DNA from: Streptomyces sp. NK15101 | GTDB taxonomy: Bacteria; Actinomycetota; Actinomycetes; Streptomycetales; Streptomycetaceae | Assembly: GCF_020400725.1 (NCBI RefSeq) | Contig: NZ_JAINVG010000013.1 | Span: 1 to 64,000, forward strand | DNA length: 64,000 bases | Direction: 5' to 3' | Part shown: piece after piece, positions 4,691 through 32,574 of the stretch | Layout: each line of letters starts with the position of its first letter | How positions within the stretch are numbered: the first letter of the stretch is position 1 | Translations under genes and position numbers: made by a program | The notes under the pieces: model-generated | Database searches by the model: none | The model's input: the letters and a program-made list of their open reading frames with translations, nothing else | Told to the model about the DNA's origin: nothing

Positions 4691-4846
4691 TGCCGCACCA
4701 GGCAACGCGCCCGCCGCAACCGGCGCCGCCGGAACGGACCGATTTCTTCACGTCTCTGCAGAGCCGGACCACCCGGGCCGAGCTCAGCACCCAGGTGACC
4801 TGCGTGATCACAGATCTGACGCCCCGTCAGAACGAGTGTCGTCCCA

Positions 4847-4970
4847 GCGTCGAGATATCGCCCGTAACGCCCGCACGGCACATACCGCGCACCCACGAAA
4901 CCGCAGGTCAGGCGTCCTTCTTCACCGGCTCCAGGATCGCGACGCACTCCACGTGGTGCGTCATCGGAAA
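4847..4970 (-). repeat. duplicated 3' end of the TrmA/RumA-type gene plus its downstream flank (copy A, putative att site)
   Basis: These bases align without gaps to 48,199-48,319 with about 10 mismatches in 121. The match covers the last 20 or so codons of the methyltransferase (HHVECVAILEPVKKDA, stop) and some 55 bases beyond its stop codon. A 31-base block around 4905-4934 is identical in both copies. This copy, not copy B, preserves the KKDA ending of the intact gene. It is the probable left attachment site of the 43 kb island, the right one being at the intact gene. Confidence 0.8.
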
Positions 4971-16578: not shown

Positions 16579-17223
16579 ATGACACCCACCCCGCAGCACC
16601 CCGCCCCTGCCTCGACGATCCCGCCCCAGCCGAACAACCGACCCTCACTGCCGCAGAAACCCACCCACGCTGCCCCAGCCGGAGCAAGTTGGAGGTTCGG
16701 ACACTCCCCCGTCGGGGGCGCGTCCGAACCAGTGCCCGCCCCGGGGGTGGCGGACTCCCTCCCGCTCCAGGGGGCGCGGGAGGGAGGGACTGCGGCCGAG
16801 GGCGGACCGCAGCCGGTGCGGCGTCGCCGGGGCAAGTCCCGCGTACGCGCCCGTACGCAGCGCCGCGCGCACAGCGTCCGTCTCAGCGACGCCGAGCACG
16901 CGACCATCGCCGCCGGCGCCGAAGCGGTCGGCATCAGCATCGCCGGATTCCTCGCCCACAGCGGACTCGCCGCCGCCCGCGATCTCGACCGCACGGCAGC
17001 GGCCATCGCCACCCGCCAGGACACCCTGACCGCCCTCTTCGCACTCCGGCGCCAGCTCGGGCACGCGAACAACAACCTCAACCAGGCCGCCCACGCACTC
17101 AACAGCGGCACTTATCCCGACGGCCTGAAGGACACCATCGCCGCCATCCGCCGTGCAGCCGACGATGTCCGCCATGTCACCGCCCGCCTCACCGACCCGA
17201 ACTCCGAAGGCACCACCGCTTGA
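16579..17223 (+). CDS. MobC-like relaxosome accessory protein
   Basis: 214 aa. The first 85 residues are low-complexity. The conserved part starts with RAHSVRLSDAEHATIAAGAE, a ribbon-helix-helix-like DNA-binding region, and continues to ALRRQLGHANNNLNQAAHAL, the signature of the bacterial mobilisation family MobC. It would bind oriT and recruit the relaxase. The ATG has AAGGATC as a weak ribosome site. The TGA overlaps the TTG of the relaxase gene, as usual for mobC-mobA pairs. Two GC-rich hairpins sit inside its 5' part. Confidence 0.82.
   Translation: MTPTPQHPAPASTIPPQPNNRPSLPQKPTHAAPAGASWRFGHSPVGGASEPVPAPGVADSLPLQGAREGGTAAEGGPQPVRRRRGKSRVRARTQRRAHSVRLSDAEHATIAAGAEAVGISIAGFLAHSGLAAARDLDRTAAAIATRQDTLTALFALRRQLGHANNNLNQAAHALNSGTYPDGLKDTIAAIRRAADDVRHVTARLTDPNSEGTTA
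16694..16786 (+). other. two adjacent hairpins inside mobC, candidate oriT or attenuator
   Basis: Hairpin one has 9-bp arms at 16,694-16,702 and 16,722-16,730 with an inner CCCCC/GGGGG pairing. Hairpin two has 11-bp arms at 16,755-16,765 and 16,776-16,786. They lie in the non-conserved 5' part of the mobC-like gene, where coding constraint is weak. Inverted repeats beside mob genes are typical of transfer origins, but no nic consensus is recognised. Confidence 0.4.
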
Positions 17224-19626: not shown

Positions 19627-20613
19627 TCAGGGCCTGTCTGCCCTGTCGGCGGCCAGGAGGCTCGCAGCCTCTTCGGCGCAGCCCCACGAGAGCGTGACGC
19701 CGGCGCCTCCGTGCCCGTAGTTGTGCACCACCACGGTGCCGTCCTCCGCCCGCTCCGCCTCCACGCGCACCATGGCCCGGGTCGGCCGGGCGCCGAGCCG
19801 GTGCTCCAGGACACGGGCCTTGGCGAGACGGGGTTCAACCTCGACACAGCGAGCGAGGATTCCGGCTGCAGCCTTCTCGTCGAGGGCAAGGCTGCCTTCG
19901 CCATCGATAGCGGTGCCGCCCAGGACAACGGTGTCGCCGTGGGGGTAGAAGCACAGCAGGTCTGGTAAGAGGCCGGTGTCCTCGGAGAAGAACTCGGTCA
20001 GCCCCGGGTTGGTGACGACGACGTGCTGGCCGCGGATGGGCCGCAGGTCATGGTCCGGGACCAGTTCCTGGGCACCCAGGCCCGTGCAGTTGACGATCAA
20101 GGCAGCGGGGCCAGCGTCCGCGAGCGAGACCAGGCGCCGCCGCTCGACCGTTCCTCCAGCGGCGTCGAGCCGGCGCAGGAGGTAGGCGAGGTAGGTGGGC
20201 ATGTCGATCAGCGGCACCGTGAACCGGTAGCCGGCCGAGAACCCGGCCGGCAGTTCGGCCGGCTCGCACGGCCGGAAGCCGGGCAGGGTGGTGGCCCAGT
20301 CCGGTGGTGCCTCGGCCGTGCGGGACGTCTCTATGCCGCTGGTGAGCCGGACGCCCGTGGACGGGTCCTCCGCCAATCTGCGGAAGATCTCCAGGGACCG
20401 CTGCCCCCACTGGTCGACCTTGTTCTTCGGCTCGACTAGGTATGGTCCCCACATCGCCCCGGCCGCCAGCGAGGTGACGCCCGGCACCTGCTCGGCGATC
20501 ACGTGCACCGAGGCTCCGGCCTCGGCCAGGACGACAGCGGTGGTGAGCCCTGCCACTCCAGCCCCGACAACGACAACGCGCACCTCGCGCTTCAAGGACG
20601 CGCCGGAGTTCAC
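19627..20613 (-). CDS. FAD-dependent D-amino-acid-oxidase-like enzyme
   Basis: 328 aa. The N-terminal Rossmann motif VVVVGAGVAGLTTAVVLAEAG binds FAD. SLAAGAMWGPY and the C-terminal HNYGHGGAGVTLSWG block match the D-amino-acid oxidase family, as does the PIRGQHVVV segment. The expected reaction is oxidative deamination of a D-amino acid or related imino substrate with O2, releasing H2O2. The gene overlaps the upstream NUDIX gene by four bases and is the last gene of a six- or seven-gene minus-strand operon. There is no peroxisomal or secretion signal, so it is cytoplasmic. The true substrate may be a pathway intermediate rather than a free amino acid. Confidence 0.85.
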   Translation of the reverse strand: MNSGASLKREVRVVVVGAGVAGLTTAVVLAEAGASVHVIAEQVPGVTSLAAGAMWGPYLVEPKNKVDQWGQRSLEIFRRLAEDPSTGVRLTSGIETSRTAEAPPDWATTLPGFRPCEPAELPAGFSAGYRFTVPLIDMPTYLAYLLRRLDAAGGTVERRRLVSLADAGPAALIVNCTGLGAQELVPDHDLRPIRGQHVVVTNPGLTEFFSEDTGLLPDLLCFYPHGDTVVLGGTAIDGEGSLALDEKAAAGILARCVEVEPRLAKARVLEHRLGARPTRAMVRVEAERAEDGTVVVHNYGHGGAGVTLSWGCAEEAASLLAADRADRP

Positions 20614-21014
20614 GAGAGCAGAGCCTTATCGAGGTAGTTCTGCACCGGCCCGAACAACCCGTACGGCACGTACTGCGGGATCTCACCATGCGTGGCCCAG
20701 GCCAGGCCGGCCACCTCATCAGCACTCGCCACGAGCGCCTGGCCGCCGACAGGGCGGCATGCAATGTAGTGGATCTCCCGGCCTGTCATGGGGTGCACCC
20801 GTTGTCCCAGCACACTCTGGGGCACCACCAGGAGCCCGGTCTCTTCCTCGGTCTCACGTGCTGCGGCTTCCCCGGGAGTCTCCTCGGATTCGATCTTCCC
20901 TGCCGGGAACTGCCACGAGAGCACCCCTTCCGCCACACGTCGCCGCACGAGCAGGACTCGCCCACCCCGCACGACGACGGCAGCGGCGACCGCTCTCTGG
21001 GCCTCGACCGTCAC
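20610..21014 (-). CDS. NUDIX hydrolase
   Basis: 134 aa with an intact NUDIX box from GKIESEETPGEAAARE through TEEETGL, around residues 39-61. The Arg/Glu metal ligands are in place. It should cleave a nucleoside diphosphate linked to another group. It is small, like MutT-type members. The stop overlaps the start of the DAAO-like gene, and the DUF89 gene ends nine bases upstream, so all three are co-transcribed. A second, different NUDIX protein opens the divergent operon at 25.4 kb. Confidence 0.88.
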   Translation of the reverse strand: MTVEAQRAVAAAVVVRGGRVLLVRRRVAEGVLSWQFPAGKIESEETPGEAAARETEEETGLLVVPQSVLGQRVHPMTGREIHYIACRPVGGQALVASADEVAGLAWATHGEIPQYVPYGLFGPVQNYLDKALLS

Positions 21015-21023
21015 GAAGATCCC

Positions 21024-22223
21024 CTACCGTCGCACCTGGACCAGCGCGTGCGTTCCACTCGTACGCCAGGCAGCCCCGGACCGTTCGAGCCCGTCCAGCA
21101 CTTCCTGCTCCAAGCCGACGATGACGTCGGACTTCAGGGTCCGGAGCGCTGCGACGGCCCCCGGGAAGTACGCGGTGAGATCGGCGAAGGACGCCTTGGC
21201 GTCCCACAGCCGGTCGCCCACCAGGCGCCGGTAGTTGAGGTCGCCCTTCAGGAGGGTGAGCGTGGCGCTCTCGAACTCGCCGCGGAGGTCCTCGGGCATG
21301 TCCTCGTACGGCAGCGGAGCGCAGAAGAACGGGTGGGTGCGGACCTCCAGGCTCCCTGCTGCCATGGCCTTCCACAGCCGGTCGCCGATCACACTGGCTT
21401 CGCCGGGTGCCTCGGTGAGGCGGCGGAGGCAGTCGACGACATCGGCCGTCATCGCGTCGGAGACGTAGTAGGGGTACGGCTTGAGGTGAAGCACGACCTG
21501 TTCGGCATGCCGCTGTTCGAGGAGGTGGTCGATGAGGATCAGGTCCGGGATCAGCTCGCGCCCCGCATTGTCCGCCACCACGGCGACGGTCGAGGAGCCC
21601 CCGACGGGCAACAGCTGCCACAACAAGGCGCTGTCGTCAGCCACCAGCCCGGAGGCAGCGGCGTCACCGGCTGCCGGCTCCCCCGCCGAGACGCGGAAGC
21701 CGAGGTCCGCACGGTTGCCCCAGAGCGACGCGTGGAGCAGGGCAGCAGCCCGCTCGTCCGCCGGAACGCTCGCGAGCGCGTCCAGGGCCCGCAGTTCCTC
21801 CTCCACGGCCTCACCGCGCAGCTCGGCCCGCTTGAACGGCGCGAACGGATCGACTCCCTGCCACGGCCCGGTGCCGAAGTACCCGACCGCGCCGAGGAGC
21901 CTGCGGTAGAAGTAGCTCTCCGCCCACAGGAACGGGGCGTCGTACCAGGAGCGCCCGAAGTGCTCCTGCCCCCAGTCCGCCCAGCGCTCACGGTCGTGTT
22001 CCCCGGGGGCGAGCGGCTCGATGACGCCGTTGGTGATCTCGTCCAGCAGGGCGTCGAGGGCCTCGTGCTGCTCACGGCCGTACGGGAAGGCGTCTCGTAC
22101 CTGCTGGATGAGGGCGGGGTGGCGCTTGGCCAGCACGCCCCAGGCGAACGAGCCGGGCTCGTTGCTCAGGATGACCGGTGCTCCATTCGCATCGCCCGAG
22201 CTGCGGGAGGTCTTCTCTGTCAT
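21024..22223 (-). CDS. DUF89 / ARMT1-like damage-control phosphatase family protein
   Basis: About 399 aa from the ATG at 22,223. The motif VADNAGRELIPDLILIDHLL (near residue 215) and LKGDLNYRRLVGDR near the C-terminus are the metal-binding signatures of DUF89 proteins, a family of metal-dependent phosphatases that remove phosphate from damaged or side-product sugar phosphates. The human relative ARMT1 was also described as a carboxyl methyltransferase. The ATG overlaps the stop of the small gene upstream in an ATGA arrangement, which fixes this start. A role in clearing a phosphorylated intermediate of the surrounding pathway is inferred. Confidence 0.83.
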   Translation of the reverse strand: MTEKTSRSSGDANGAPVILSNEPGSFAWGVLAKRHPALIQQVRDAFPYGREQHEALDALLDEITNGVIEPLAPGEHDRERWADWGQEHFGRSWYDAPFLWAESYFYRRLLGAVGYFGTGPWQGVDPFAPFKRAELRGEAVEEELRALDALASVPADERAAALLHASLWGNRADLGFRVSAGEPAAGDAAASGLVADDSALLWQLLPVGGSSTVAVVADNAGRELIPDLILIDHLLEQRHAEQVVLHLKPYPYYVSDAMTADVVDCLRRLTEAPGEASVIGDRLWKAMAAGSLEVRTHPFFCAPLPYEDMPEDLRGEFESATLTLLKGDLNYRRLVGDRLWDAKASFADLTAYFPGAVAALRTLKSDVIVGLEQEVLDGLERSGAAWRTSGTHALVQVRR

Positions 22224-22429
22224 GGCGTCCAAGCCCTTCGGTTCTCGCTCACATGTCCATGGTCCCCACGGGTCACAACGCCAGCAGCGCTACCTACCAG
22301 CACCTCACCCGTCGCCGGAGTGAGACGTCCATACACCCGGACCTTCGATCTGCCGCTGAGGTGGGAAGTGAACCGCTCCGTCCCCAGACGCCGTACCTCG
22401 ATGCCTCCGGTTCCCGGCCCGATCGCCAC
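22220..22429 (-). CDS. 69-aa basic protein, unknown
   Basis: A short ORF starting with GTG (VAIGPGTGGIEVRRLG) whose TGA overlaps the ATG of the DUF89 gene by four bases, a hallmark of translational coupling and the main reason to believe it. It is basic and has no cysteine or membrane segment. The middle part (SKVRVYGRLTPATGEVLVG) looks like a small beta-rich fold. I do not recognise a family. Confidence 0.5.
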   Translation of the reverse strand: MAIGPGTGGIEVRRLGTERFTSHLSGRSKVRVYGRLTPATGEVLVGSAAGVVTRGDHGHVSENRRAWTP

Positions 22430-22496
22430 CCCAGCCTCACTGATCGCGGAGCTTCTTCTCTGAATGCCATCGTCGTCGCATCCCGCCGGCGTGGTC

Positions 22497-23411
22497 TCAG
22501 CCCTTGGCGAGAAGTTCCCTGGCCGCGTAGTAAGCGTGCAGTGCGGCCTCGCTTCCGGAGCCCATGGCAGTCATGATCCGCTGGAAGCGGGCGGAGCGGA
22601 GGTCGCCTGCCACGATGACGCGGGGGTGCTGATCGGTCGGCGGGCAGTACCCGTCCAGACCGCGAGTCAAGTCGCCGGACGGGGCGGTCGGGGCATTGCC
22701 GATGCTGAGGTGGACTGCATCCGCCGTGATCGCCTGCCGTTCGCCGTTCCGGCCCACCGCTTCCACCGACACCGCGATGCCTTTTCCGGTCCGGAGCGTC
22801 AGGTGCTCCACGGGAAGGAGCGTGACCCGAGGGTCCTCGCGGATCTCCTCGATCTTGTACGCGTCGGCCGCCGGGTACGCCACGAGCAGGCGGGTGTCGG
22901 TGGTCGGGTGAGCGCGCAGGAAGGTGCCGATCGGGCGGTCGCCGCCGAGGACAAGGAGGGTGCGGCCCTCGGCGTCATCCGCCTCGGCCTGCCAGAGCGG
23001 GGGCAGGGTCAAGCCGTCGGGGGCGGTGATCCAGGCGACGTCGCGGGGCTGGAGGGGGCCGACGCCGGTGGCGACGATTGCGTACGGGGCGGTGAGACGG
23101 GTGTCAGTGTCGAGCGTGATGGTCACCCGGTCGTCGTCGGCGCGGAGCTCGGTGACGTGTCTGCCGAGTTCGAGGCGGCACAGCTCCGTGCTCTTCAGCT
23201 CCGCGACGACGGCGTCGGCGAGCTCGGGGCCGCTGGTGTAGCCGCCGAGGACGTTGTTCAGGGCCGGGATCCGGTAGAGGTTGCGGCACAGCCGGTCCGG
23301 CTCGATCAGGATCGAGCGCATGCCGACGCCGGCGGCCATGCGGGCAGCGGCGCAGCCGGCCGGGCCGCCGCCGATGATGATCAGGTCGGTGTCGTACAGC
23401 GTGTCGGCCAT
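22497..23411 (-). CDS. thioredoxin-reductase-like flavoprotein without the redox CxxC
   Basis: 304 aa. DLIIIGGGPAGCAAARMAAG is the FAD-binding Rossmann fold, TLLVLGGDRPIG near 150 stands where the NAD(P)H-binding domain begins, and VIVAGDLRSARFQRIMTAMG is the C-terminal FAD contact of the thioredoxin reductase family. The usual catalytic CxxC pair is absent, so it cannot reduce thioredoxin in the normal way and probably acts as a flavin-dependent oxidoreductase on a small molecule. The next gene starts after a gap of four bases, which indicates an operon. Confidence 0.85.
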   Translation of the reverse strand: MADTLYDTDLIIIGGGPAGCAAARMAAGVGMRSILIEPDRLCRNLYRIPALNNVLGGYTSGPELADAVVAELKSTELCRLELGRHVTELRADDDRVTITLDTDTRLTAPYAIVATGVGPLQPRDVAWITAPDGLTLPPLWQAEADDAEGRTLLVLGGDRPIGTFLRAHPTTDTRLLVAYPAADAYKIEEIREDPRVTLLPVEHLTLRTGKGIAVSVEAVGRNGERQAITADAVHLSIGNAPTAPSGDLTRGLDGYCPPTDQHPRVIVAGDLRSARFQRIMTAMGSGSEAALHAYYAARELLAKG

Positions 23412-23415
23412 GGGG

Positions 23416-23985
23416 CTATTCCAGCACCGGGGTCCCGGCGTACGCAGCGAGTTGGCCGATCACGTGGTCGGTGGTGACGAGTTGACCGGTTCCGATCAGG
23501 CGGCGGGCGACGACGAGGCCGGCGTCGTGGACGTCGGGGCCGGCGTCGCTGGCGCAGGCGTCGGTGACGATCCAGGGCGCGTAGCCGTGCTCGAAGGCGT
23601 CGGCGGCGGACTTCAGGACACAGCTCTCGGTGGCTATCCCGCAGAAGACGAGGTCGGTCCAGCCCGCCCGGCGGATCAGTTCGGCTGCCTCCGGAGTGAG
23701 GAGCGTGTACCCGGTTTTGTCGACGACCGCGTGCGCGTCGGCGGCAGCGTTGGCGAGCTCGGGGACGATGTCGGTCTCGGGTGGTTCCTGGAGCCGACGC
23801 CACTGGAAGAAGCGCTCGTAGGGGCTGTCCGGATAGTTGAAGTACCGGGTGAAGACCACAGGCCGTCCGGCGGCGGACCACTGGGCGACCAGGTCGGAGA
23901 CCGCGGGAACGGCGTGGCGGCTGTGGTGGTTCACGAAGCCGTTCTGCATGTCGATCACGACCAGCGCGGCGCTGCCGATGTCCAT
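23416..23985 (-). CDS. isochorismatase-family cysteine hydrolase
   Basis: 189 aa from the ATG at 23,985, with GGAG in the upstream ribosome site. The catalytic triad is visible: Asp in VVIDMQNGFV near residue 11, Lys in VDKTGYT near 92, and Cys in CGIATESCVL near 123. Members hydrolyse amide or vinyl-ether bonds, for example nicotinamide, isochorismate or N-carbamoyl compounds. The substrate here cannot be deduced. It lies between the XRE regulator and the flavoprotein on the same strand with short gaps. Confidence 0.88.
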   Translation of the reverse strand: MDIGSAALVVIDMQNGFVNHHSRHAVPAVSDLVAQWSAAGRPVVFTRYFNYPDSPYERFFQWRRLQEPPETDIVPELANAAADAHAVVDKTGYTLLTPEAAELIRRAGWTDLVFCGIATESCVLKSAADAFEHGYAPWIVTDACASDAGPDVHDAGLVVARRLIGTGQLVTTDHVIGQLAAYAGTPVLE

Positions 23986-24008
23986 CCGCTGTCTCCTGCC
24001 CCGTGTTC

Positions 24009-25142
24009 TCACCCGACGCTCTCGCGTAGAGCGTCCTGTGCGGCGCGCAGCCGTTCGGCCAGTCCGCTGGTCTTCATGATGGCCTCCCGCATCAGGACGT
24101 GCTGTGCGGTCTCCTGGGCTCGGGCGGTGGTGAGCCGGGAGTAGGCGGCGCGCAGGAAGCGCCAGCCGTACTGCTCGGGCGTGGAGGGGTCCTGGCCGTC
24201 CTCGATCATCTGCTGGATCTGGCGGGTGAAGCACCAGAGGGCCTGGACGGTCAGCTCACAGGTGACCAGCTCTTCGATGGAGAGGCTGCGCTCGCGGGAG
24301 TGGGAGGAGTAGGCGACGCCGGACCAGCCGGCATAGCCGGTGGAGACTCCCCTTACGCCGAAAGACACGATGTCCGGGTGGTCGAAGCCGGAGGCGAGGA
24401 GCGATGCCTCGACCGTGCCATCCAGGGGTGCGGGCCCGCCCGGGGCGCCGCGGTCGACCAGGACCGAGGGTGTGGACAGCAGGCGCAGTGCGGTGTCGTA
24501 GGCGTCGCCGGACCAGGGACCGGAGGTGAGCCAGTACAGGGAGAGGACGTACTCGGGGTTGGGGATGCGGTCATGGTCCTCGTCGAGGAGGTCGCGGAGC
24601 TTGTTCCTAGCCCAAGGCAAGTCGGAAGCGTACGAGCGGTAGCGCCAGACAGCGAGGTCGGTGAGCGCGGGAGGCTCGTGGGGTTGGACGAGGTGGAAGA
24701 CGGCGGCCCCGCAAGCGAAGACGTGCAGGACGCACTCCTGTGCTTCGGGGTGGTCGATGCGGACCGAGGAGGATTCCAGCCACTGGTCGCCCGCGCCCGG
24801 CGTCATGTGTGCGCGGAGTAGGCCAGCGCGCTCGGCGCCGATGAAGACCGGCAGGAATTTGTGGGAGTCAACGCCGATCCGGCCTGTGGCGGGTGGAGCA
24901 GCGCCGTTCGTTCCCAGGGCTGCTGCGAACCGGGCTTTCACGTCGTCCGACGCGCGGCCGAGCGCGGTGTCGAGGACAGCCTGGGATTCACCACGGGGCT
25001 GGTAACCCGCTCCGCCGCCTTCCCAGTTCGACACAGTCCGGTCGCTCACGCCCAGGTAGGCGGCGAAGTCCCGCAGGCTCATGCGCAGGGCGTCGCGTAA
25101 CAGCCGGGCTTCCCGGCCGGACCATCGCTGCACCGTGACCAC
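24009..25142 (-). CDS. XRE-family regulator with large C-terminal domain
   Basis: 377 aa. The helix-turn-helix is at residues 10-40: RDALRMSLRDFAAYLGVSDR and TVSNWEGGG. The rest is a large domain without a recognised catalytic motif (DSHKFLPVFIGAE, then a helical C-terminus), as in Streptomyces XRE regulators of about 380 aa. It is the first gene of the minus-strand operon and diverges from the NUDIX-led plus-strand operon, so it is the likely controller of both. Start GTG at 25,142. Confidence 0.82.
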   Translation of the reverse strand: MVTVQRWSGREARLLRDALRMSLRDFAAYLGVSDRTVSNWEGGGAGYQPRGESQAVLDTALGRASDDVKARFAAALGTNGAAPPATGRIGVDSHKFLPVFIGAERAGLLRAHMTPGAGDQWLESSSVRIDHPEAQECVLHVFACGAAVFHLVQPHEPPALTDLAVWRYRSYASDLPWARNKLRDLLDEDHDRIPNPEYVLSLYWLTSGPWSGDAYDTALRLLSTPSVLVDRGAPGGPAPLDGTVEASLLASGFDHPDIVSFGVRGVSTGYAGWSGVAYSSHSRERSLSIEELVTCELTVQALWCFTRQIQQMIEDGQDPSTPEQYGWRFLRAAYSRLTTARAQETAQHVLMREAIMKTSGLAERLRAAQDALRESVG

Positions 25143-25357
25143 CGTCGTACCCCCTGTCCGTCACCCGGTGGAACGCCGAAACGGCCAGCGTAGCCAGCCT
25201 TGTTCAGCAGTGGTGCGGCATTGCTGCAGCACCCGTACGTCACACCCCGCCATCGGCCTCCACCATGCTGGGTCCACCGAGCCGGGGAGCTGCCGGCCGC
25301 GACCAGGCGGCCCTCCGCCCGTTCTCTCCTGTACCACCACCAGAAGGAGCAATCGGC
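25143..25357. promoter_or_regulatory. divergent promoter region between the two metabolic operons
   Basis: 215 bases separate the regulator start from the NUDIX start, so promoters for both operons must lie here. An imperfect symmetrical patch around GTGCGGCATTGCTGCAGCAC (25,215 or so) is a possible operator. I cannot assign clear -10 and -35 boxes. AAGGAG at 25,344 is the ribosome site of the NUDIX gene. Confidence 0.4.
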
Positions 25358-25825
25358 ATGACCGACATCGTCAAACGCAACGCCCGCGCCATCCTCCTCG
25401 ACGGCGACGAGCTCGTCCTCATCAAGCGCACCAAGCCGGACAGGGAGCCGTACTGGGTGTCCGTCGGCGGAGGGGTGGAGGCGGACGACGCGACCATCGA
25501 GGCGGCCCTGCACCGGGAGGTGTTCGAGGAGCTGGGTGGCAAGCTGGAGCGCGCCGAGCTCGTCCACCTGGTCACCGACGAGCTGGAAGGCGGCGTCGGC
25601 GTGCAGCACATCTTCGCCGCGCGCCTGGAGTCGATGGACCTGGCCGCGCGTACGGGGACGGAGTTCGCCAAGCCGGAGCGGGGCGGGTACGAGGTGGTCC
25701 GGGTGCCCTTCACCGCCGAGGCCGTCCGCGAGCTGAACCTGATGCCGCCGGAGCTCGCCGAGTTCATCGCCGCGAACACGGACGCGATCGTCTCCGTCCT
25801 CGACACCCCGATCCGCGAGGCGTGA
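25358..25825 (+). CDS. NUDIX hydrolase
   Basis: 155 aa. The NUDIX box is present as GGVEADDATIEAALHR followed by EVFEELGG, around residues 40-62. The insert before REV-like HREV is normal length. It differs clearly from the minus-strand NUDIX protein. Starts at the ATG behind AAGGAG; the longer frame to 25,265 runs into the promoter region. First gene of the eight-gene plus-strand operon, three bases before the kinase gene. Likely acts on a nucleotide or nucleotide-sugar of the pathway. Confidence 0.9.
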   Translation: MTDIVKRNARAILLDGDELVLIKRTKPDREPYWVSVGGGVEADDATIEAALHREVFEELGGKLERAELVHLVTDELEGGVGVQHIFAARLESMDLAARTGTEFAKPERGGYEVVRVPFTAEAVRELNLMPPELAEFIAANTDAIVSVLDTPIREA

Positions 25826-25828
25826 GCG

Positions 25829-26476
25829 ATGGCGCAGGTCCCGGACTTCGTCAGCCTCAACGGCCCTGACAACGTGGGCAAGACGACCCACCTGGTACGG
25901 CTGGCCGAGCGGTGGGACGGCTTCCAGCCGCTGGGCGCGGTCCACGAGCACGACCCCGAGCCGTGGGCGCGGGCGGCGGCCGGCGACTACGCCCGGTGGT
26001 GGTTCGAGACGTCCACGACGGTCGAGCTGACCGAGATGCTGCTCGCCGGCCACGCCAAGCGCGCCGCCGCCCGCGAAGCCGGGCGTACAGGGCTGCTCGA
26101 CCGGGGCCTGCCCATGCTCCTCGCCGTGGCCACCGCGACCTGCGTGGTCAAGGACGGGCTGACGGTCGGCGAGGCGTTCAAAACCGTGACGGGCATCGCC
26201 GGTTCGCGAGCCACAGCACCGGAGGTCTCGATCCTCCTGCTCCCGTCCCTCGATGTTGAGCGCAGCTACGCCATCACCAGCGCCCGCGAGGGCCGCCCGT
26301 GGACCGGGATCTACCCGGCCTACCAGAAGACGCTGCACGCGGTCCTGCTCCACCAGGCAGAGCACGGCGCGTACACCGCGGTCGTGGACTGCGAGGACCG
26401 CTCCCTGGACGACGTACACAGCGACGTAGTCGATCGCCTTGGCCTCAGCCCCCTCGCTGATGGGAGTCCCCGATGA
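25829..26476 (+). CDS. thymidylate-kinase-like P-loop kinase
   Basis: 215 aa. P-loop NGPDNVGKTTHLVRLAE is at residues 12-28, with the GLLDRGLPM block near 90, in the place of the DR-Y substrate motif of TMP kinases. It is not the housekeeping tmk, which is usually fused or linked elsewhere in Streptomyces. It probably phosphorylates a nucleotide or related metabolite. The stop overlaps the next gene's ATG by four bases. Confidence 0.8.
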   Translation: MAQVPDFVSLNGPDNVGKTTHLVRLAERWDGFQPLGAVHEHDPEPWARAAAGDYARWWFETSTTVELTEMLLAGHAKRAAAREAGRTGLLDRGLPMLLAVATATCVVKDGLTVGEAFKTVTGIAGSRATAPEVSILLLPSLDVERSYAITSAREGRPWTGIYPAYQKTLHAVLLHQAEHGAYTAVVDCEDRSLDDVHSDVVDRLGLSPLADGSPR

Positions 26477-28272
26477 CCCAGAACTCCCCGCCCCTGGTCC
26501 TGCCGCCCGGCCTAGCCCGCGCCATAGTCACGCTCCAGGACAAGGACCTGCACCGCCTTGACGACACCGTCACCCGGCTCCACACCGTCAACGGACGCCT
26601 GTGGGACACCGAGGACCGGGTGCGCGGCGCCCTGCTCTCCGCCACCCAGGTCGCGGACTGCAAGCGGGAGATCGACCAGCTCAACGCCGAACGCAACACG
26701 CTGGCCGAGCGGGCCGACGAGGTCCTCGGCTCGCTGGCGGACGCGGGCCGCGCCGACGCGCCGCTGCACACCGAGACGCTCGCCTCCGTCGTCGACCGTC
26801 TGTCGGTGCTGACGCTGCGGATCTGGCACAGCGAGCGCGCGGCGGCCCGGGACGAGCTGGCCCGCCGGCGAGTCCCTGCCCTCCATGGCCAGCGGGAGGA
26901 GCTGTGCGCCGCCCTCGACGCGCTGGTCTCCGACGTCGTCGCCGGCCGCCGCCGGCTTCCCGTACCGGCCCGGTTCAAGCTGTACGGCCGGGACGACGCC
27001 GCCCCCGCGGAGATCAAGCCGAGCCGGCACCTGCGCCGGGTCCTCGCCTTCGGTGGGCTGAGCGAGTGCGGCAAGAGCACCAGCGCCGAGTTCGTCCAGC
27101 GTACGTGCGGTGCCCAGCGCCTCAAGATCGGCTTCCTGTTGCGGCAGGCGGCTCACCGGGAGGGCCTCGCGGACCCGTACGCGCTCTCGGCCCGTCGGCA
27201 GGCAGAACTGCTGCTCGGCGAGCTGAACCGCTTCGCGGACGCCCACGTCGACACGCGGCTGTTCACCATCGAGTCCGTCCACGACGACGCCTCGATCGCC
27301 GAGCTCAAGCAGCTCATGGGCGACATCCTCCAAATCGTCTACCTGGACGCCTCCTTCGCCGTACGCGTCGAGCGGTCCGGGACGCCGGCCCAGGCCGTCG
27401 CCGCGAAGGACGAGATCAAGATGAGCCGTGGCGCCCACCAGGTCGCCGCACTCGCCGACCACGTCATCGACAACACCAGCAGCATCGCCGCCCTCCGCGC
27501 CCGCCTCCGGCACATCGCCGCCCCGCCCGCCGCCACGGCGCTGCGCGTGGCCACCCCGTACGGGCTGGGGCTGCCGGCCGCCATCGCCTCGGCGACGGCC
27601 GACTTCACCGACGCGGTACGGGCCTACGGCCCCGGCGTAAGGCTCGCCGCCCTGACCGGCAGCCCCGGGGAGGGCAGTTGGATCGCCGGCTGGTCCGATC
27701 TGGACCTCCTCGTGATCGCCGAGCACGAGACCATCGGCCAGGTACACGAGGCCCTGGAGCAGTACGGGACCGCCCTGGGCGGTGCGGCCTCCCTCGGCCC
27801 CACCCTCGTCACCCCCGGCGAACTGACCGCCCGACGCCTCACCCCGCGCCTCGCGTTCGTCCTCCACCAGCTCCAGCAGGGCAGCCCCGTCCTCCACGCC
27901 GCACCCGACCTCGAACTTCCGACGATCAGCCGGGACGATCTGGCGTTCGCCGCCGTCCGGGAACTCCCCCAGGTCATCCTGACCATGCGCCGACTGCGCG
28001 CCCATGCAGGACCGACGGCTCTGCGGCAGCTCTACAAGCACCTCGTGCTCGCCTGCCGCCTCCTCCTGCGCGAACACAACCAGTGGGAGTCCGGCCCCGA
28101 CCGGATCCTCGCCTCGGCCTCCCGCATGCCGGGCCTTCCCGCCCTCTCGGTGCCCTCCCTGGCCGAGATCGCCAGCGCCTGGCGCGACGGCGAGGCCGAG
28201 CTCGTGCTCAAGCCCGTCTGCGCGGCTGTCGACCAGTTCCTTGCCTGGTACGCCGCCCAGCTCGCAGCCTGA
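26473..28272 (+). CDS. DUF4254-like, P-loop kinase and nucleotidyltransferase fusion
   Basis: 599 aa with three parts. Residues 15-170 match the DUF4254 pattern: LHTVNGRLWDTEDRVR, then CKREIDQLNAERN. Residues 190-350 form a P-loop kinase-like domain (FGGLSECGKSTSAEF, later VIDNTSS as in dephospho-CoA-kinase-like folds). Residues 375-599 look like a minimal nucleotidyltransferase: GSPGEGSWIAGWSDLDLLVI gives the GS...DxD pattern, followed by a helical bundle. DUF4254 proteins are often found beside GT9 glycosyltransferases, and one follows two genes downstream. The reaction is unknown. Starts at the ATG overlapping the kinase stop. Confidence 0.78.
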   Translation: MTQNSPPLVLPPGLARAIVTLQDKDLHRLDDTVTRLHTVNGRLWDTEDRVRGALLSATQVADCKREIDQLNAERNTLAERADEVLGSLADAGRADAPLHTETLASVVDRLSVLTLRIWHSERAAARDELARRRVPALHGQREELCAALDALVSDVVAGRRRLPVPARFKLYGRDDAAPAEIKPSRHLRRVLAFGGLSECGKSTSAEFVQRTCGAQRLKIGFLLRQAAHREGLADPYALSARRQAELLLGELNRFADAHVDTRLFTIESVHDDASIAELKQLMGDILQIVYLDASFAVRVERSGTPAQAVAAKDEIKMSRGAHQVAALADHVIDNTSSIAALRARLRHIAAPPAATALRVATPYGLGLPAAIASATADFTDAVRAYGPGVRLAALTGSPGEGSWIAGWSDLDLLVIAEHETIGQVHEALEQYGTALGGAASLGPTLVTPGELTARRLTPRLAFVLHQLQQGSPVLHAAPDLELPTISRDDLAFAAVRELPQVILTMRRLRAHAGPTALRQLYKHLVLACRLLLREHNQWESGPDRILASASRMPGLPALSVPSLAEIASAWRDGEAELVLKPVCAAVDQFLAWYAAQLAA

Positions 28273-28313
28273 ACAGTCCTTTTCCTCCTTCTCCACCCGA
28301 CAGGAGCTTCGCC

Positions 28314-28889
28314 ATGCCCGAAATCACCGCCGTGTCGTCCTTCTCCGCCCGGATCGTCGAGCGCCTCAGCGTCGGAGCCACGAGCCGCCGCGAGCGTGTC
28401 ATCCACTCCCTCGACGGCCTGGAGACCCCGGTCCACCCCGACACCCTCGCCCACACCGGAGCCGACCTCTGGCATCTGCTCCAGAAGCAGGTGCCGGACG
28501 GACTCGATTCCGTGGACTTCCTCCTCGGCCTGGACGCCGGCGGCATCCTGCCGACCGTCTCCCTCGCCGGTGCCGCCCACCTCCCGTACAAGATCGCCTG
28601 GAAGCTGCACCTCCCGCTCGACGGCGCGGTCCGCTTCAGCGAGCCCCACGCGATGCGCACCGACGTCTTCGCCTACGGCATCGCCCCCGGCCAGCGGATC
28701 GTCATCGTGGACGACGAGATCACCACCGGCCGGACCCTGGCCGACCTCACCCGCCGCCTCCACGAGGCCGGCGCCGTTCCGCTGGCGGCGGTCTGCCTGG
28801 TGGAGGACACCACTCGCGGAGCCCGCGACCTGCTCACCGACCTCGGTCTGCCGCTCGTCTCCCTCACCACGATCGAGGGCGCGGCGTGA
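28314..28889 (+). CDS. phosphoribosyltransferase
   Basis: 191 aa from the ATG at 28,314 after CAGGAG. The PRPP-binding motif VIVDDEITTGRTL lies near residue 123 and LLGLDAGGILPTVSLA forms the earlier PP-loop-like region, both typical of type I phosphoribosyltransferases such as orotate or purine enzymes. It would join ribose-5-phosphate from PRPP to a base, or release it. The stop overlaps the GTG of the glycosyltransferase by four bases. Which base is used cannot be said. Confidence 0.87.
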   Translation: MPEITAVSSFSARIVERLSVGATSRRERVIHSLDGLETPVHPDTLAHTGADLWHLLQKQVPDGLDSVDFLLGLDAGGILPTVSLAGAAHLPYKIAWKLHLPLDGAVRFSEPHAMRTDVFAYGIAPGQRIVIVDDEITTGRTLADLTRRLHEAGAVPLAAVCLVEDTTRGARDLLTDLGLPLVSLTTIEGAA

Positions 28890-30043
28890 CAGCGGTCGCC
28901 CCGGCGGGGGTCCGGTTCCACCACGGCTCCCTGGTCATCCCCGCCGGGGCCGTGCACACCACCCCGCTCGGGTACGACCGCGACAGCGTTCCCATCGGCG
29001 CACCGCTCCCGCTGGCCGCCTCCGCCGAGCTCGTCCACCGCCTGAGCGGGTGCGGCGAGGTCGTGGTGGCCTTCGAGGGGAAGCTCGGCGACACCCTCCT
29101 CGCGCTTTCGGGAGTCCGCGCGGTCCTCGACTGGCTGCGGCTGCGGTCGGTTCGCGTGGCCGTCCGGGCGGTGGGTCCGTACGCGGGGCTGATCGCCCGC
29201 ACCGGGCTGATCACCAAGCCCCAGCCCACCCCGCCCAGCGGCTGGCGGGCCGTGATCGGCGACCGCGCGGGGATCGAGGCGCACGGCTCGGAGGCGGTGG
29301 TGAGCCTGGTGCTCGACCCGGCGGCCCCGCCGTGCTGGTCGAGCGACGGCCGCGCCCACCCGGACCTGCCCACCCGCCACTACCTGGCCCTGGAGCGCCG
29401 CCTCGGCATCCGCCTGCCCGACACGGCCCCCTTCGCTCCCACCCTCGCGACCGGTCCGAACAACCTCGTGGAGGAACTGCGCTCGGTGGGCTGGCTGGGC
29501 GGCCTGACCGTCGCCGCCATCACCGCCACCAGCTGGCCGGAGCGCAAGGACTACACCGCCCAGCGCTACATCGAACTCGTCGAGCACATCGCGGAGGCCC
29601 AGCAGGCCCAGGCCCGGCTGCTTCTCATCGGCGGCAACCCGGGCGACGGCCTCCGCATCGCCGCAAAAGCTCCCCGGCGCCACGTACAGGCCCTCCGCAT
29701 CGACGGCATGCCGGCCGACGGCCTCGCCGACCTCTTCCCGCACTGCCACCTCATCGTCGGCAACGACACCGGCCTCACCCACCTCGCCGCGATGGCCCGC
29801 CGCCGGGACGGAAGCTCCCCGCCCGTCATCGGCCTGTACTCCCGCCACAGCCACAGCAAATGGCGCACCGGCCTGCCGCACCACCACGCCGTCGCCACCG
29901 CCCTGTCCGACCGCATGCACCAGGGCGACCTCTGTCCCGTCCGCGACGCCATCGCCCCGGACACGAACATCCACATGGACGCCTTCCCGCCCGCCGCGCT
30001 GGCCCAGGTCGGCCTCGAACTACTCAACGGGGTGAGACCATGA
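28886..30043 (+). CDS. glycosyltransferase family 9 (heptosyltransferase-like)
   Basis: 385 aa from the GTG overlapping the previous stop. FEGKLGDTLLALSGVRAV near residue 63 is the N-terminal GT9 motif and LIVGNDTGLTHLAAMA near 290 the C-terminal donor-binding motif. GT9 enzymes in Gram-negatives add heptose to LPS using ADP-heptose. In a Streptomyces without LPS the donor and acceptor must differ, so a sugar transfer to a small molecule or surface polymer is inferred. It contains about 60 residues before the first motif that are unusual for the family. Overlaps the next gene as ATGA. Confidence 0.85.
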   Translation: MTAVAPAGVRFHHGSLVIPAGAVHTTPLGYDRDSVPIGAPLPLAASAELVHRLSGCGEVVVAFEGKLGDTLLALSGVRAVLDWLRLRSVRVAVRAVGPYAGLIARTGLITKPQPTPPSGWRAVIGDRAGIEAHGSEAVVSLVLDPAAPPCWSSDGRAHPDLPTRHYLALERRLGIRLPDTAPFAPTLATGPNNLVEELRSVGWLGGLTVAAITATSWPERKDYTAQRYIELVEHIAEAQQAQARLLLIGGNPGDGLRIAAKAPRRHVQALRIDGMPADGLADLFPHCHLIVGNDTGLTHLAAMARRRDGSSPPVIGLYSRHSHSKWRTGLPHHHAVATALSDRMHQGDLCPVRDAIAPDTNIHMDAFPPAALAQVGLELLNGVRP

Positions 30044-31176
30044 CTTTCCAGCCTCTCCTCCGGCTGGGTCCGGTACGGCGCTTCACCCGCAACCTGCTCC
30101 GCCCCGTCGACCTCCTCGGCCGCGCGCTGCTCCTGAAGTACACCCGCGACCCGGCCGAGGCCCGCGAGGAGATCCGCGGCCACGCCCGCCTGTCCCGGCA
30201 CTACCGCGTCCCTGCCCTCCACGCCCACCTGCGCGTGCCGGGCGGGCACCTGCTCACGTACGAACGTCTCCCCGGCGGCACCGACCAGGGACTCCTGCTC
30301 GACCTCCTCAACGCGGACGAACCGAGCAGTGATCTCCGCAGCTACATGGACCAGCTCACGGCGGCGTACCGCGAGGTCATTCTCACGACAGCATGGCCGG
30401 CCGAGCCGACGCACGTCGTCCGCAAGCTGTACTGGGACCGCGCGGCGCCCGGCGGCCGCCTTGACACGTACTACGCCGGTAGGGACTTCCTGTTCGCTGG
30501 CGGCCTCATCGACGTCCCGGTCTCCCGCCTCGACACCTACGCCCTGAACATCAACGGCCGCCGGCACCACCTGGACTGGGCCGCGACCCTCCGCTGGCTC
30601 CGCACCCACTTCGCCTCCGCGGAGCCGGTCTGGGCGGCCCTCACCCAGGGCGACCCCACCGACGTCAACCTCGCCCACCCGCTCGCGTGGTTCGACTACG
30701 ACACCGCCGGGATGAACAGCATCCCCGGGGAGTTCGCCAACTTCCTCTGGTACGCCTCCGCCCTCGGCGGCTGGCTCGTGCCCACGTACAACCCGACCGC
30801 CTTCGCCGACCACCCCGCCACCTTCGCCCGCGTCCCGGCCAACACCCCCGAGCTCCGACGAGCGGACATCGACCACACCACCAGCACCATCCACATCGAC
30901 TACACCCCGCACCTCTCGGCTCCCCGGCAAGCCGCGGTGACCGCGTACTGGACCCAGCTCGTACGGCCGGTCGCGGACCGCCTCTGGCCAGGGTCGGACC
31001 TGGCTAACCTGCTCCGCCCCTACCTGGCCATGCGCATCCTCGGCGTCTACAACCTGGCCGACCTGGCCCCCGAGGACCGGCTCGTCCTGCTCGCCCGGCT
31101 CGCCGAGGCGATGAGCCCCACGTTCGACCCCACCACCTACTTCTGCCCGCTGGAGTCGCCATGCCCGGCCCCCTGA
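30040..31176 (+). CDS. aminoglycoside-phosphotransferase-like (APH fold) protein
   Basis: 378 aa. LTQGDPTDVNLAHPLAWFDYDTAGM near residues 205-225 reads like the catalytic loop HGDxxxxN and the metal-binding Asp of APH/choline-kinase folds, with the first His replaced by Gln. The N-lobe (LLTYERLPGG) is consistent. It probably phosphorylates a small molecule or sugar, though the changed loop residue leaves some doubt about activity. Overlaps the SDR gene by 16 bases. Confidence 0.68.
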   Translation: MTFQPLLRLGPVRRFTRNLLRPVDLLGRALLLKYTRDPAEAREEIRGHARLSRHYRVPALHAHLRVPGGHLLTYERLPGGTDQGLLLDLLNADEPSSDLRSYMDQLTAAYREVILTTAWPAEPTHVVRKLYWDRAAPGGRLDTYYAGRDFLFAGGLIDVPVSRLDTYALNINGRRHHLDWAATLRWLRTHFASAEPVWAALTQGDPTDVNLAHPLAWFDYDTAGMNSIPGEFANFLWYASALGGWLVPTYNPTAFADHPATFARVPANTPELRRADIDHTTSTIHIDYTPHLSAPRQAAVTAYWTQLVRPVADRLWPGSDLANLLRPYLAMRILGVYNLADLAPEDRLVLLARLAEAMSPTFDPTTYFCPLESPCPAP

Positions 31177-31922
31177 ACGGCCGCACCGCCCTCATCACCG
31201 GAGCCACCGGCGGCCTCGGCTCGGCCATCGCCCGCCGCCTCGCCGCCGACGGCGCCACCGTCGCCCTCGCCCACTTCAGCGACGACCAGGCCGCGACCCA
31301 GCTCGCCACCCACATCACCGACAGCGGCGGCACCGCAATCTCCCTGGCAGCCGACCTCCGCGACACCGAGGCCGTACAGACGCTCTGCCACCAGGCCGGC
31401 GACGCACTCGGCCCGATCGACATCCTGGTCAGCAACGCCGGCGCCTATCCCCGCCGACCGTGGCCGGAGACCACGCCGGCCCACTGGAACGAGGCCCTGG
31501 CCACCAACCTGACCAGCCACTACCTCCTCGCACATGAGCTGACCCCCGCCATGACGGCCGCCGGCTGGGGCCGGATCATCACCATCGGATCCGTCCTGGC
31601 CACGGCGGGCCGCCACGACCTCTCCGGCTACATCAGCGCCAAGGCGGGCCTCGAAGGACTCACCCGTGCCCTCGCCCGCGAACTCGGCCCCGCCGGCATC
31701 ACCGCGAACTGCGTCGCCCCCGGTTCCATCCGCGTACCCGCCGAGGACACCGTCGTCGACGACCCGGAGGCCATGACCGTCCGCCAGATCGCCCGCCAGT
31801 GCGTCCAGCGCCGAGGCCGCCCGAACGACGTCGCCGCCGCCGTCGCTTTCCTCACCACCGACGACGCCGGCTTCATCACCGGCCAGACCCTGCGCGTCGA
31901 CGGAGGCTGGATCCTTGCCTGA
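31161..31922 (+). CDS. short-chain dehydrogenase/reductase
   Basis: 253 aa classical SDR: NAD(P)-binding TGATGGLGSAIARRLA at residues 13-28, LVSNAGAY near 90, catalytic Ser in ITIGSVLA near 140 and YISAKAG with the YxxxK pair near 156, and the C-terminal ITGQTLRVDGGW. All catalytic residues are present, so it should be an active reductase or dehydrogenase. It resembles FabG-type enzymes but is embedded in the metabolic operon, not in a fatty-acid cluster. It overlaps its neighbours at both ends. Confidence 0.92.
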   Translation: MPGPLNGRTALITGATGGLGSAIARRLAADGATVALAHFSDDQAATQLATHITDSGGTAISLAADLRDTEAVQTLCHQAGDALGPIDILVSNAGAYPRRPWPETTPAHWNEALATNLTSHYLLAHELTPAMTAAGWGRIITIGSVLATAGRHDLSGYISAKAGLEGLTRALARELGPAGITANCVAPGSIRVPAEDTVVDDPEAMTVRQIARQCVQRRGRPNDVAAAVAFLTTDDAGFITGQTLRVDGGWILA

Positions 31923-32574
31923 GATCTGGCTCATGCGCCACGGCGCCTACGAAGGCCACCGCCCCGGCTACCACGCCCCGCACGAGGCCACCCTCACTCA
32001 GGAGGGCCGCGACCAGGTACGCCGCTCCCTACCCCTTCCCGAGGGCATCACCGCGATCGTCACCAGCCCCATCCCCCGCGCCCGCCAGACCGCCACACTC
32101 GTCTCGCACCTCACGGGCCTGCCCATCGTGGCCACCTCCGGCCTCCTGGCCGAATGGCGAGCCCCGAGCATCGTCCTCGGCCGCACCGCCGAGACCTACC
32201 CGCCGGCCTACCGCGCCTGGCGAGCCCGACGCCTCGCCAACCCCTCCCTACGCTGCGAAGACGGCGAAAGCCTCACCGACCTCCACACCCGCGCCCGCCA
32301 CTGCGCCGCCTTCCTCCACCACACCGCCGGGCGCCACGGCCCCCTCCTGGCTGTCTCCCACACCCTCCTCCTCGGCGTCCTCACCCACCTCCCAGAAGGC
32401 CCCGCTGCCTTCATCACCGCTGCGAGGACGCCTTGGCAGTTCGTCGAGCGCCGCTTGTTCACCCTGGCGCTGCACCAACACCCCAGCCCCTACCGCGGTA
32501 CGTTGCCGTCCATCGAGGGTCGGGCGTCGACCGCTCTACCGGGCGATCCAGCATTGCCGCAGACCGGAGCGTGA
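31915..32574 (+). CDS. histidine phosphatase (phosphoglycerate-mutase-like)
   Basis: 219 aa starting with TTG inside the SDR gene's end. LMRHGAYEGH at residues 6-15 holds the phospho-accepting RHG motif, SPIPRARQTA the second Arg, and AVSHTLLLGVL near 142 the C-terminal catalytic His. It should dephosphorylate a small phosphorylated metabolite, a plausible last step of the operon. The last 30 residues are probably unstructured. Confidence 0.87.
   Translation: MPEIWLMRHGAYEGHRPGYHAPHEATLTQEGRDQVRRSLPLPEGITAIVTSPIPRARQTATLVSHLTGLPIVATSGLLAEWRAPSIVLGRTAETYPPAYRAWRARRLANPSLRCEDGESLTDLHTRARHCAAFLHHTAGRHGPLLAVSHTLLLGVLTHLPEGPAAFITAARTPWQFVERRLFTLALHQHPSPYRGTLPSIEGRASTALPGDPALPQTGA

What the first reader, a model, noticed from the sequence alone, without database searches (positions are those of the whole stretch)
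19627..32574. Fifteen-gene divergent metabolic cluster of unknown product
One regulator divides two tightly overlapping operons. Plus side: NUDIX, TMP-kinase-like, DUF4254-kinase-NTase fusion, phosphoribosyltransferase, GT9, APH-like kinase, SDR, histidine phosphatase. Minus side: isochorismatase-like, CxxC-less flavoprotein, 69-aa protein, DUF89, NUDIX, DAAO-like. The set can make, phosphorylate, glycosylate, reduce and dephosphorylate a nucleotide- or sugar-linked compound, and carries several clean-up enzymes. No known pathway with this content comes to mind. Being island cargo, it could make a nucleoside-like antibiotic, a modified surface sugar, or a defence or self-immunity metabolite.
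Basis: partly seen in the sequence, partly recalled or inferred. Interest (0 to 1): 0.65.

Follow-up and report, generated by a model that had tools for sequence, protein, structure and literature searches.

The report
Mobile eleven-gene Streptomyces metabolic cassette
A regulated set of eleven metabolic genes, found on mobile DNA in Streptomyces, probably builds a nucleotide- or sugar-phosphate-like compound by a route that I could match to no described pathway.

Summary
The genes are real and well named, but the conserved unit is eleven genes (22497-32574), not fifteen. All eleven are near full length in 21 of 31 related loci; parts of both halves are present in 28 of 31. All eleven show purifying selection, and the halves co-diverge. 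Of the far-left genes DUF89 occurs in 1 of 31 loci, and the 69-aa ORF is doubtful. In the window the cassette is cargo of a 43.4-kb integrated element bounded by direct repeats of at least 129 bp. Between the halves lies an 11-bp-period repeat array seen nowhere else in the genome.

It is a composite. XRE-hydrolase-flavoprotein is an independent module of actinomycete plasmids; a sister operon (kinases, nucleotidyltransferase, APH, SDR, NUDIX) stands alone, partly near relaxases; DUF4254 and GT9 pair elsewhere.

Best reading: an intracellular nucleotide-sugar or phosphoribosyl assembly line under a dedicated regulator. The cassette holds the genome's only GT9 match, and no HldE domain was found. 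The product is unknown.

The parts
4832..4960 (.). left copy of a direct repeat of at least 129 bp (putative attL) bounding the 43.4-kb element
   Evidence: 90% identical to 48184-48312
48184..48312 (.). right copy of the repeat (putative attR), over the 3' end of ORF 48260-49588, which I read by eye as a TRAM-type methyltransferase
11638..12624 (-). tyrosine integrase of the element
   Evidence: PF00589 E 2.5e-23
17220..18935 (+). MobA/VirD2-like relaxase next to the cassette; a homologue lies in 9 of 31 loci (one a fragment)
   Evidence: PF03432 E 3.5e-9
19627..20613 (-). DAO-type FAD oxidoreductase, variable extra
   Evidence: PF01266; 4 of 31 loci, one partial
20610..21014 (-). NUDIX hydrolase NUD2, variable extra
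   Evidence: PF00293; minus side in 8 of 31 loci
21024..22223 (-). DUF89/ARMT1-like damage-control phosphatase, not core
   Evidence: PF01937 E 1.2e-61; 1 of 31 loci
22220..22429 (-).
   Evidence: no family hit; full length only in L020/L063
22497..23411 (-). core: TrxR-like flavoprotein without CxxC
23416..23985 (-). core: isochorismatase-like cysteine hydrolase; Asp12, Lys90, Cys122 invariant
   Evidence: PF00857
24009..25142 (-). core: XRE-type regulator, 377 aa
   Evidence: PF01381 marginal; hit in 28 of 31 loci, best segment under 70% of its length in L001, L020, L022
25203..25242 (+). candidate operator: four TNCRGCA-like direct repeats at 11-bp period (the fourth with a mismatch)
   Evidence: 28 of 31 loci; only site in 8.34 Mb at up to 1 mismatch; 2 matches against 0.01 expected in the window at up to 2 mismatches
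25358..25825 (+). core: NUDIX hydrolase NUD1, among the most conserved proteins of the set
   Evidence: PF00293
25829..26476 (+). core: P-loop protein, thymidylate-kinase-like by weak similarity
   Evidence: P-loop invariant; AAA_28 E 0.0053; thymidylate kinases at E 0.37 or worse; fused to the next protein in the sister operon
26473..28272 (+). core: DUF4254 (aa 32-164) + NMP-kinase-like domain (185-352) + AadA-like nucleotidyltransferase with C-terminal helical domain (363-599)
   Evidence: PF14063 E 3.5e-35; VIA-align Z 13.9 to AAD(9), 11.7 to 3lw7
28314..28889 (+). core: type I phosphoribosyltransferase, motif VDDE(I/V)TTG kept in 15 sequences
   Evidence: PF00156
28886..30043 (+). core: GT9 glycosyltransferase, the only PF01075 match found in the genome
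30040..31176 (+). core: kinase of APH/5-methylthioribose-kinase fold
31161..31922 (+). core: short-chain dehydrogenase/reductase
   Evidence: PF13561 E 5.5e-58; 51-54% identical to the sister operon's SDR
31915..32574 (+). core: histidine phosphatase
   Evidence: PF00300 E 3.2e-19

Best explanation
An eleven-gene cargo cassette that makes an intracellular nucleotide-sugar or phosphoribosyl-type compound under its own regulator. Shown: the gene set, its conservation, the mobile element around it in the window, the unique repeat array, the modular make-up. Inferred: the XRE protein binds the array and controls both operons. The APH-fold kinase makes a sugar phosphate; the AadA-like domain transfers AMP to it, giving an ADP-sugar; the SDR alters the sugar; GT9, helped by DUF4254, transfers it. 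The PRT adds 5-phosphoribose from PRPP to the acceptor; the TMPK-like and NMP-kinase-like domains add phosphates; the histidine phosphatase and NUDIX enzymes trim intermediates. The hydrolase and flavoprotein make or destroy the small molecule that the regulator reads. The logic parallels the ADP-heptose pathway (kinase, phosphatase, nucleotidyltransferase, SDR, GT9; recalled) but with other kinase and nucleotidyltransferase families.
For: Core of eleven near full length in 21 of 31 loci; dN/dS 0.09-0.43; halves co-diverge, r 0.98. The sister operon keeps TMPK, kinase, NTase, APH, SDR (51-54%) and NUDIX together without the rest in 7 of 8 fetched genomes, which suggests one pathway. GT9 is the only PF01075 match in the genome and no HldE adenylyltransferase domain was found, so a donor from a host ADP-heptose route is unlikely. 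DUF4254 sits beside GT9 in two other contexts (L058; Burkholderia GT9/DUF4254-GT2/GT9). Motifs of GT9, PRT and isochorismatase invariant. Operator array in 28 of 31 loci and unique in the genome. Fold matches to AAD(9)/AadA, AdkA-like kinase, MTR kinase.
Against: No substrate or product is known. AadA-like enzymes adenylylate drug hydroxyls, not sugar phosphates (recalled), and by eye the residue that I take for AadA Glu87 (recalled) reads Gly in the cassette and sister rows, so the domain may not catalyse AMP transfer. Models are of middling confidence (mean pLDDT 70 and 72; kinase domain and an active-site stretch lower), and Foldseek alone gives the APH model no match at E 0.001. The SDR is of the classical adh_short_C2 type, not an extended sugar epimerase. 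The flavoprotein and hydrolase fit no defined step. XRE binding to the array is not shown. Several copies are broken, so the compound is dispensable.
Confidence: 0.36

Rival explanations
1. Mobile-element signalling or conjugal-immunity module: the enzymes make or turn over a small nucleotide-derived signal that the XRE regulator reads to control transfer or exclusion of the element.
For: XRE-hydrolase-flavoprotein is a stand-alone module of actinomycete plasmids, beside GntR or winged-helix and WhiB genes and, in Nocardia, a TraM-type gene; four of the five triad-only genome loci (L071, L073-L075) hold such plasmid-like genes. Passages of PMC3218068 report that AICEs often carry NUDIX genes, that some share an HD hydrolase-NUDIX-XRE cluster, and that the NUDIX protein Pif of pSAM2 gives conjugal immunity. 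Relaxase homologue in 9 of 31 loci.
Against: The operator array occurs only in this cassette, not at transfer genes. Eleven genes is much for a signal. 21 of 31 loci show neither a relaxase nor a clear integrase homologue of the window's in the stretch held, up to 10 kb a side. Similarity of NUD1 to Pif could not be tested: the pSAM2 accession is not held.
Confidence: 0.22
2. Anti-phage system: the cassette makes a nucleotide analogue or modified nucleotide that blocks phage replication inside the cell.
For: The element also carries a type ISP restriction enzyme and a ThsB-like TIR protein. Nucleotide-kinase and NTase domains; the NTase domain has a weak PADLOC match, PDC-M05A (E 4.2e-5), and resembles HalB of Hailong in fold (Z 9.9).
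Against: No strong PADLOC hit among the ten core proteins scanned (SDR not given). The restriction enzyme is next to the cassette in only 1 of 31 other loci. I recognised no effector gene.
Confidence: 0.14
3. Small-molecule antibiotic cluster whose product is exported, e.g. a nucleoside or aminoglycoside-like compound.
For: Streptomyces host; PRT, GT, SDR, kinases and phosphatase would fit nucleoside or O-ribosylated sugar antibiotics (recalled).
Against: No transporter-like gene and no obvious scaffold-making enzyme among the eleven; no described cluster found.
Confidence: 0.12
4. Drug- or metabolite-inactivating stack: AadA-like and APH-like enzymes modify a toxic compound, others recycle it.
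For: The best fold matches of two parts are aminoglycoside nucleotidyltransferases and MTR kinase/APH.
Against: Fold similarity only, at about 10-17% identity; fusion to NMP-kinase and DUF4254 domains, a PRT and GT9 are not expected.
Confidence: 0.08

Closest known systems
Sister operon in Streptomyces (L047-L050, L052-L054), not described in anything I found
   Same: TMPK, NMP-kinase-like and NTase domains, APH (31-36%), SDR (51-54%), NUDIX (37-43%) side by side; a relaxase homologue near L048-L050 and a fragment near L054
   Different: TMPK fused to kinase-NTase; no DUF4254, PRT, GT9, phosphatase, hydrolase or flavoprotein match; six of seven have a divergent ~439-aa protein that I read by eye as the regulator (only a sub-threshold TPR hit in the one scanned)
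XRE-isochorismatase-flavoprotein module of actinomycete plasmids (e.g. S. libani pSP90; Nocardia plasmids have only the first two)
   Same: same families in the same order, XRE 38-47% identical over 78% or more
   Different: no divergent eight-gene operon; the operator array was not found in the triad-only genome loci (plasmid stretches not scanned)
ADP-heptose pathway with GT9 heptosyltransferases (recalled; family models)
   Same: order of chemistry: kinase, phosphatase, nucleotidyltransferase, SDR, GT9
   Different: kinase and nucleotidyltransferase of other families; HldE domain not found in this genome
HD hydrolase-NUDIX-XRE cargo of AICEs and Pif of pSAM2 (PMC3218068, passages)
   Same: mobile actinomycete setting, XRE regulator next to NUDIX
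   Different: no HD hydrolase in this core; eleven genes rather than three

Membership tests
GT9 glycosyltransferases | PF01075 match over the curated cut-off | tested here: met
   48.3 bits against 22
GT9 glycosyltransferases | N-terminal GD motif and C-terminal DTGxTHLA motif (recalled) | tested here: met
   G68, D69 and N293-A301 invariant in 15 sequences
GT9 glycosyltransferases | use of an ADP-sugar donor | not testable with these tools
   donor unknown
ADP-heptose pathway | HldE-type adenylyltransferase (TIGR02199) in the genome | tested here: not met
   0 matches at E 0.001 in G000 while 11 of 14 control genomes ring, 3 over the cut-off
Isochorismatase-like cysteine hydrolases | PF00857 and Asp-Lys-Cys triad (triad recalled) | tested here: met
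   122.9 bits against 27; D12, K90, C122 invariant in 14 sequences
Thioredoxin reductase | redox-active CxxC | tested here: not met
   no CxxC in 13 aligned sequences; 49.9 bits against the TIGR01292 cut-off of 343.45
AadA/AAD(9) aminoglycoside nucleotidyltransferases | NTase plus C-terminal helical domain of the same fold | tested here: met
   nine AadA/AAD(9)/ANT rows, Z 11.8-13.9 over 207-214 residues, rmsd 3.4-4.4
AadA/AAD(9) aminoglycoside nucleotidyltransferases | catalytic Glu (AadA Glu87, recalled) | tested here: inconclusive
   the position that I take for it by eye is Gly in the cassette and sister rows of A8, other residues in L059/L060; no residue-level structural alignment
Integrative mobilizable element | integrase, relaxase, flanking direct repeats | tested here: met
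   excision and transfer not tested
Known anti-phage systems (PADLOC-DB 2.0.0) | strong hit of core proteins to defence families | tested here: not met
   best are E 2.6e-6 and 4.2e-5, both below 26 bits; SDR not given to that call
Pif-type conjugal immunity (pSAM2) | homology of NUD1 to Pif | not tested
   pSAM2 accession not held

The most novel reading that the evidence does not exclude
A new class of mobile-element metabolic cassette that makes a dedicated nucleotide-sugar signal or antiviral nucleotide inside the cell by a non-homologous ADP-sugar route, with interchangeable regulator and enzyme modules shared among actinomycete plasmids, AICE-like and mobilizable elements.
Probability: 0.2. 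Interest if true: 0.8.

Novelty: new variant of a known kind. Interest (0 to 1): 0.5.

Why it matters
Streptomyces mobile elements are known for transfer genes and scattered cargo. Here a conserved enzyme pathway under its own regulator appears to travel as a unit, with a simpler sister operon and a plasmid-borne regulatory triad that suggest how it was assembled. If the product is a signal or an antiviral nucleotide, it would link mobile-element biology to small-molecule chemistry. It also gives DUF4254, a family of unknown function, a testable role as a GT9 partner.

Tried and rejected
Rejected: (1) fifteen genes as the unit: DUF89 and the 69-aa ORF fail conservation. (2) GT9 fed by host ADP-heptose: HldE domain not found. 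(3) Known defence system: no strong PADLOC hit; no match of the fusion in the phage collection at E 1e-5. (4) Plasmid copy of the whole cassette: the fusion is covered to at most 25% in 7 plasmid records.

Led nowhere: literature searches for the gene set (PMC CC-licensed text only; one search found DUF4254 in one paper, seen in the listing only); searches on butirosin O-ribosylation and ADP-heptose antibiotics (listings only, not used); PDB sequence search for the APH protein (0 hits); PHROGs (weak hits). Folds missing from the structure lists are not excluded.

Limits of the counts: L030 and L031 are fragments, and L005 and L010 end inside the cassette; all are kept in the counts of 31. L028 and L031 are from one strain. 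The genome sets overlap (L020 and L063 appear to be one contig), so they are not independent. Of 14 genomes with the sister kinase-NTase (E 2.8e-71 to 1.5e-60) I fetched 8; 7 show the sister operon, L051 is divergent. In L054 the fused ORF is split, and in L053 APH and SDR were called as one ORF. Of 17 of 295 genomes with the hydrolase at E 1e-30 I fetched context for eight new loci: five hold the triad, three do not (L068 hydrolase and flavoprotein; L069 and L070 hydrolase only); L067 holds hydrolase, flavoprotein and NUD2 without XRE or plus half.
Full report
Observation. Pfam confirms most families. The TMPK-like protein has only a weak P-loop hit (E 0.0053) and thymidylate kinases at E 0.37 or worse in the PDB search. 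The APH-like protein has no Pfam or PDB sequence hit and is placed by structure: 5-methylthioribose kinase Z 9.9, APH(3')-Ia Z 9.3, on a model of mean pLDDT 72 for which Foldseek alone gives nothing at E 0.001. The flavoprotein is TrxR-like without CxxC. The 69-aa ORF has no family and is full length only in L020 and L063, apparently one contig, near-identical to the window.

The real unit. One scan of genome contigs with the DUF4254 fusion gave 31 loci, all Streptomyces or Actinacidiphila. Mapping the window proteins on them shows an eleven-gene core: flavo, isoch, XRE on one strand and NUD1, TMPK, DUF4254 fusion, PRT, GT9, APH, SDR, HP on the other. All eleven are within 20% of the window's length in 21 of 31. 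Parts of both halves are present in 28 of 31; the three without are L025 (no minus half) and the fragments L030 and L031. NUD2 is on the minus side in 8 of 31, DAAO in 4 of 31, DUF89 in 1 of 31. In five pairs all eleven genes have dN/dS of 0.09-0.43 (Nei-Gojobori). Distances of the two halves correlate at r 0.98 in 22 sequences (Mantel, 0 of 2000 permutations). This shows one shared history, but vertical descent would give it too; no host marker was compared.

Frequency. In 295 Streptomyces genomes the fusion is in one piece in 9, own genome included, and broken in 2. In 396 genomes of the phylum it is full length in 2, both Streptomyces.

Mobile setting. The window holds a tyrosine integrase and a MobA-type relaxase. 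Direct repeats of at least 129 bp, 90% identical, at 4832-4960 and 48184-48312 bound 43.4 kb. A third, 46-bp copy lies at 1991-2036, and some relatives hold several copies within tens of kb, so the site is probably a hotspot (inference). Relaxase homologues lie in 9 of 31 loci (one a fragment), an integrase like the window's in L018 and a weakly similar one in L027. Apart from relaxase genes, NUD2 and DAAO, clustering of called genes showed one further flank family shared with the window by three or more loci, which may be an antisense artefact.

Regulation. The 215-bp divergent region holds TTCAGCA, TGCGGCA, TGCAGCA, TACGTCA at an 11-bp period (25203-25242), followed downstream by CATGCTG, invariant in 16 aligned sequences. 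The three-repeat array, a motif taken from that alignment, scores at least 16 of 18 in 28 of 31 loci, in none of L025, L030, L031, and in none of the sister or triad-only loci scanned. One off-site match of 16 occurs in L014. In the own genome, at up to one mismatch, it occurs only here, two overlapping matches in 8.34 Mb. I infer it is the XRE operator; binding is not shown.

A composite of modules. (a) Kinase-NTase homologues without DUF4254 occur in 14 of 295 genomes at E 2.8e-71 to 1.5e-60. Of 8 fetched, 7 have TMPK-kinase-NTase (one ORF in six, split in L054), APH (31-36%), SDR (51-54%) and NUDIX (37-43%) side by side; six have a divergent protein of about 439 aa that I read by eye as a regulator, with only a sub-threshold TPR hit in the one scanned. 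Relaxase homologues are near three of them (L048-L050) and a fragment near L054. (b) The minus half stands alone: XRE-isoch-flavo in five loci L071-L075. L067 has hydrolase, flavoprotein and NUD2 without XRE or plus half. On plasmids, 18 of the 33 records matching XRE cover at least 78% of it; in all 18 the hydrolase match lies within 55 bp, and in 13 the flavoprotein follows. Contexts read: a GntR or winged-helix gene before it, WhiB nearby, a large unknown ORF after it; on pSP90 the neighbours are annotated hypothetical. Hydrolase and flavoprotein also occur without XRE (S. atratus plasmid) and the flavoprotein alone. (c) The plus half without the minus half: L025 (regulator not looked for) and L064, where a homologue of the sister's putative regulator lies about 2.8 kb upstream with other ORFs between. 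(d) DUF4254 with GT9 elsewhere: L058, and GT9/DUF4254-GT2/GT9 in Burkholderia; the Legionella DUF4254 gene has no GT neighbour.

Chemistry. The fusion's middle domain resembles adenylate-kinase-like NMP kinases (3lw7, Z 11.7) and its C-terminal part AAD(9)/AadA (Z 11.8-13.9), with HEPN-type helices (Z 11, a range in which helical matches can be chance) (model pLDDT 70, lower in the kinase domain). PRT and GT9 keep their motifs. GT9 is the only PF01075 match in the genome, and the HldE adenylyltransferase domain was not found. From this I infer that the donor for GT9 is made by the cassette or is another ADP-sugar of the host; which one is open. A parallel with the ADP-heptose order of reactions is my proposal; families differ and membership fails on HldE. 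By eye, the acidic residue I recall as AadA Glu87 is Gly here, which speaks against simple AMP transfer.

Known context. Passages of PMC3218068 report that AICEs often carry NUDIX genes, that some share an HD hydrolase-NUDIX-XRE cluster, and that Pif of pSAM2 is a NUDIX protein of conjugal immunity. Passages of PMC9513070 report aminoglycoside phosphotransferase and flavoprotein cargo and high pseudogenization in AICEs, in line with the broken copies here. No paper with this gene set came up.

Verdict. Real, conserved, mobile in the window and undescribed as far as searched; smaller than claimed and modular. Most likely an intracellular nucleotide-sugar or phosphoribosyl pathway (0.36), with mobile-element signalling the strongest rival (0.22).

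Noticed in passing
32925-37790: Type ISP restriction-modification enzyme (PF18135 E 1.8e-104) directly after the cassette; an 85% homologue follows the cassette in L026 only of 31 loci.
   Followed up: partly
39236-41335: Two TIR-domain proteins; 40826-41335 matches ThsB of Thoeris (E 3.3e-79). No ThsA partner was looked for.
   Followed up: no
6522-11349: Weakly PLD-like protein plus a Ser/Thr kinase-SF1 helicase fusion between the left repeat and the integrase, lower in GC than the surroundings; looks like a further defence candidate.
   Followed up: no
1991-2036: Third copy of the flanking repeat (46 bp, 93%), suggesting tandem insertions at the same site.
   Followed up: partly
L059:7960-9798 and L060:8805-10640: Orphan TMPK-kinase-NTase gene next to genes that I read as fus, tuf and ribosomal proteins; the P-loop of its second kinase domain is degenerate.
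   Followed up: partly
L035:1-13552: Bradyrhizobium plasmid cluster with PEP-mutase-family, aconitase, PRT, prs, ribulose-phosphate epimerase and a homologue of the fusion's kinase domain (31%): a phosphonate-like pathway with phosphoribosyl steps (reading by eye).
   Followed up: no
L034:8744-12704: Burkholderia multivorans GT9, DUF4254-GT2 fusion, GT9 in a row: independent DUF4254-glycosyltransferase link.
   Followed up: partly
47621-47995: Vsr-like endonuclease (PF03852 E 1e-7) near the right repeat.
   Followed up: no
plasmid hits H131, H143, H144: The N-terminal part of the XRE regulator matches proteins annotated SUMF1/EgtB/PvdO family on three actinomycete plasmids.
   Followed up: no
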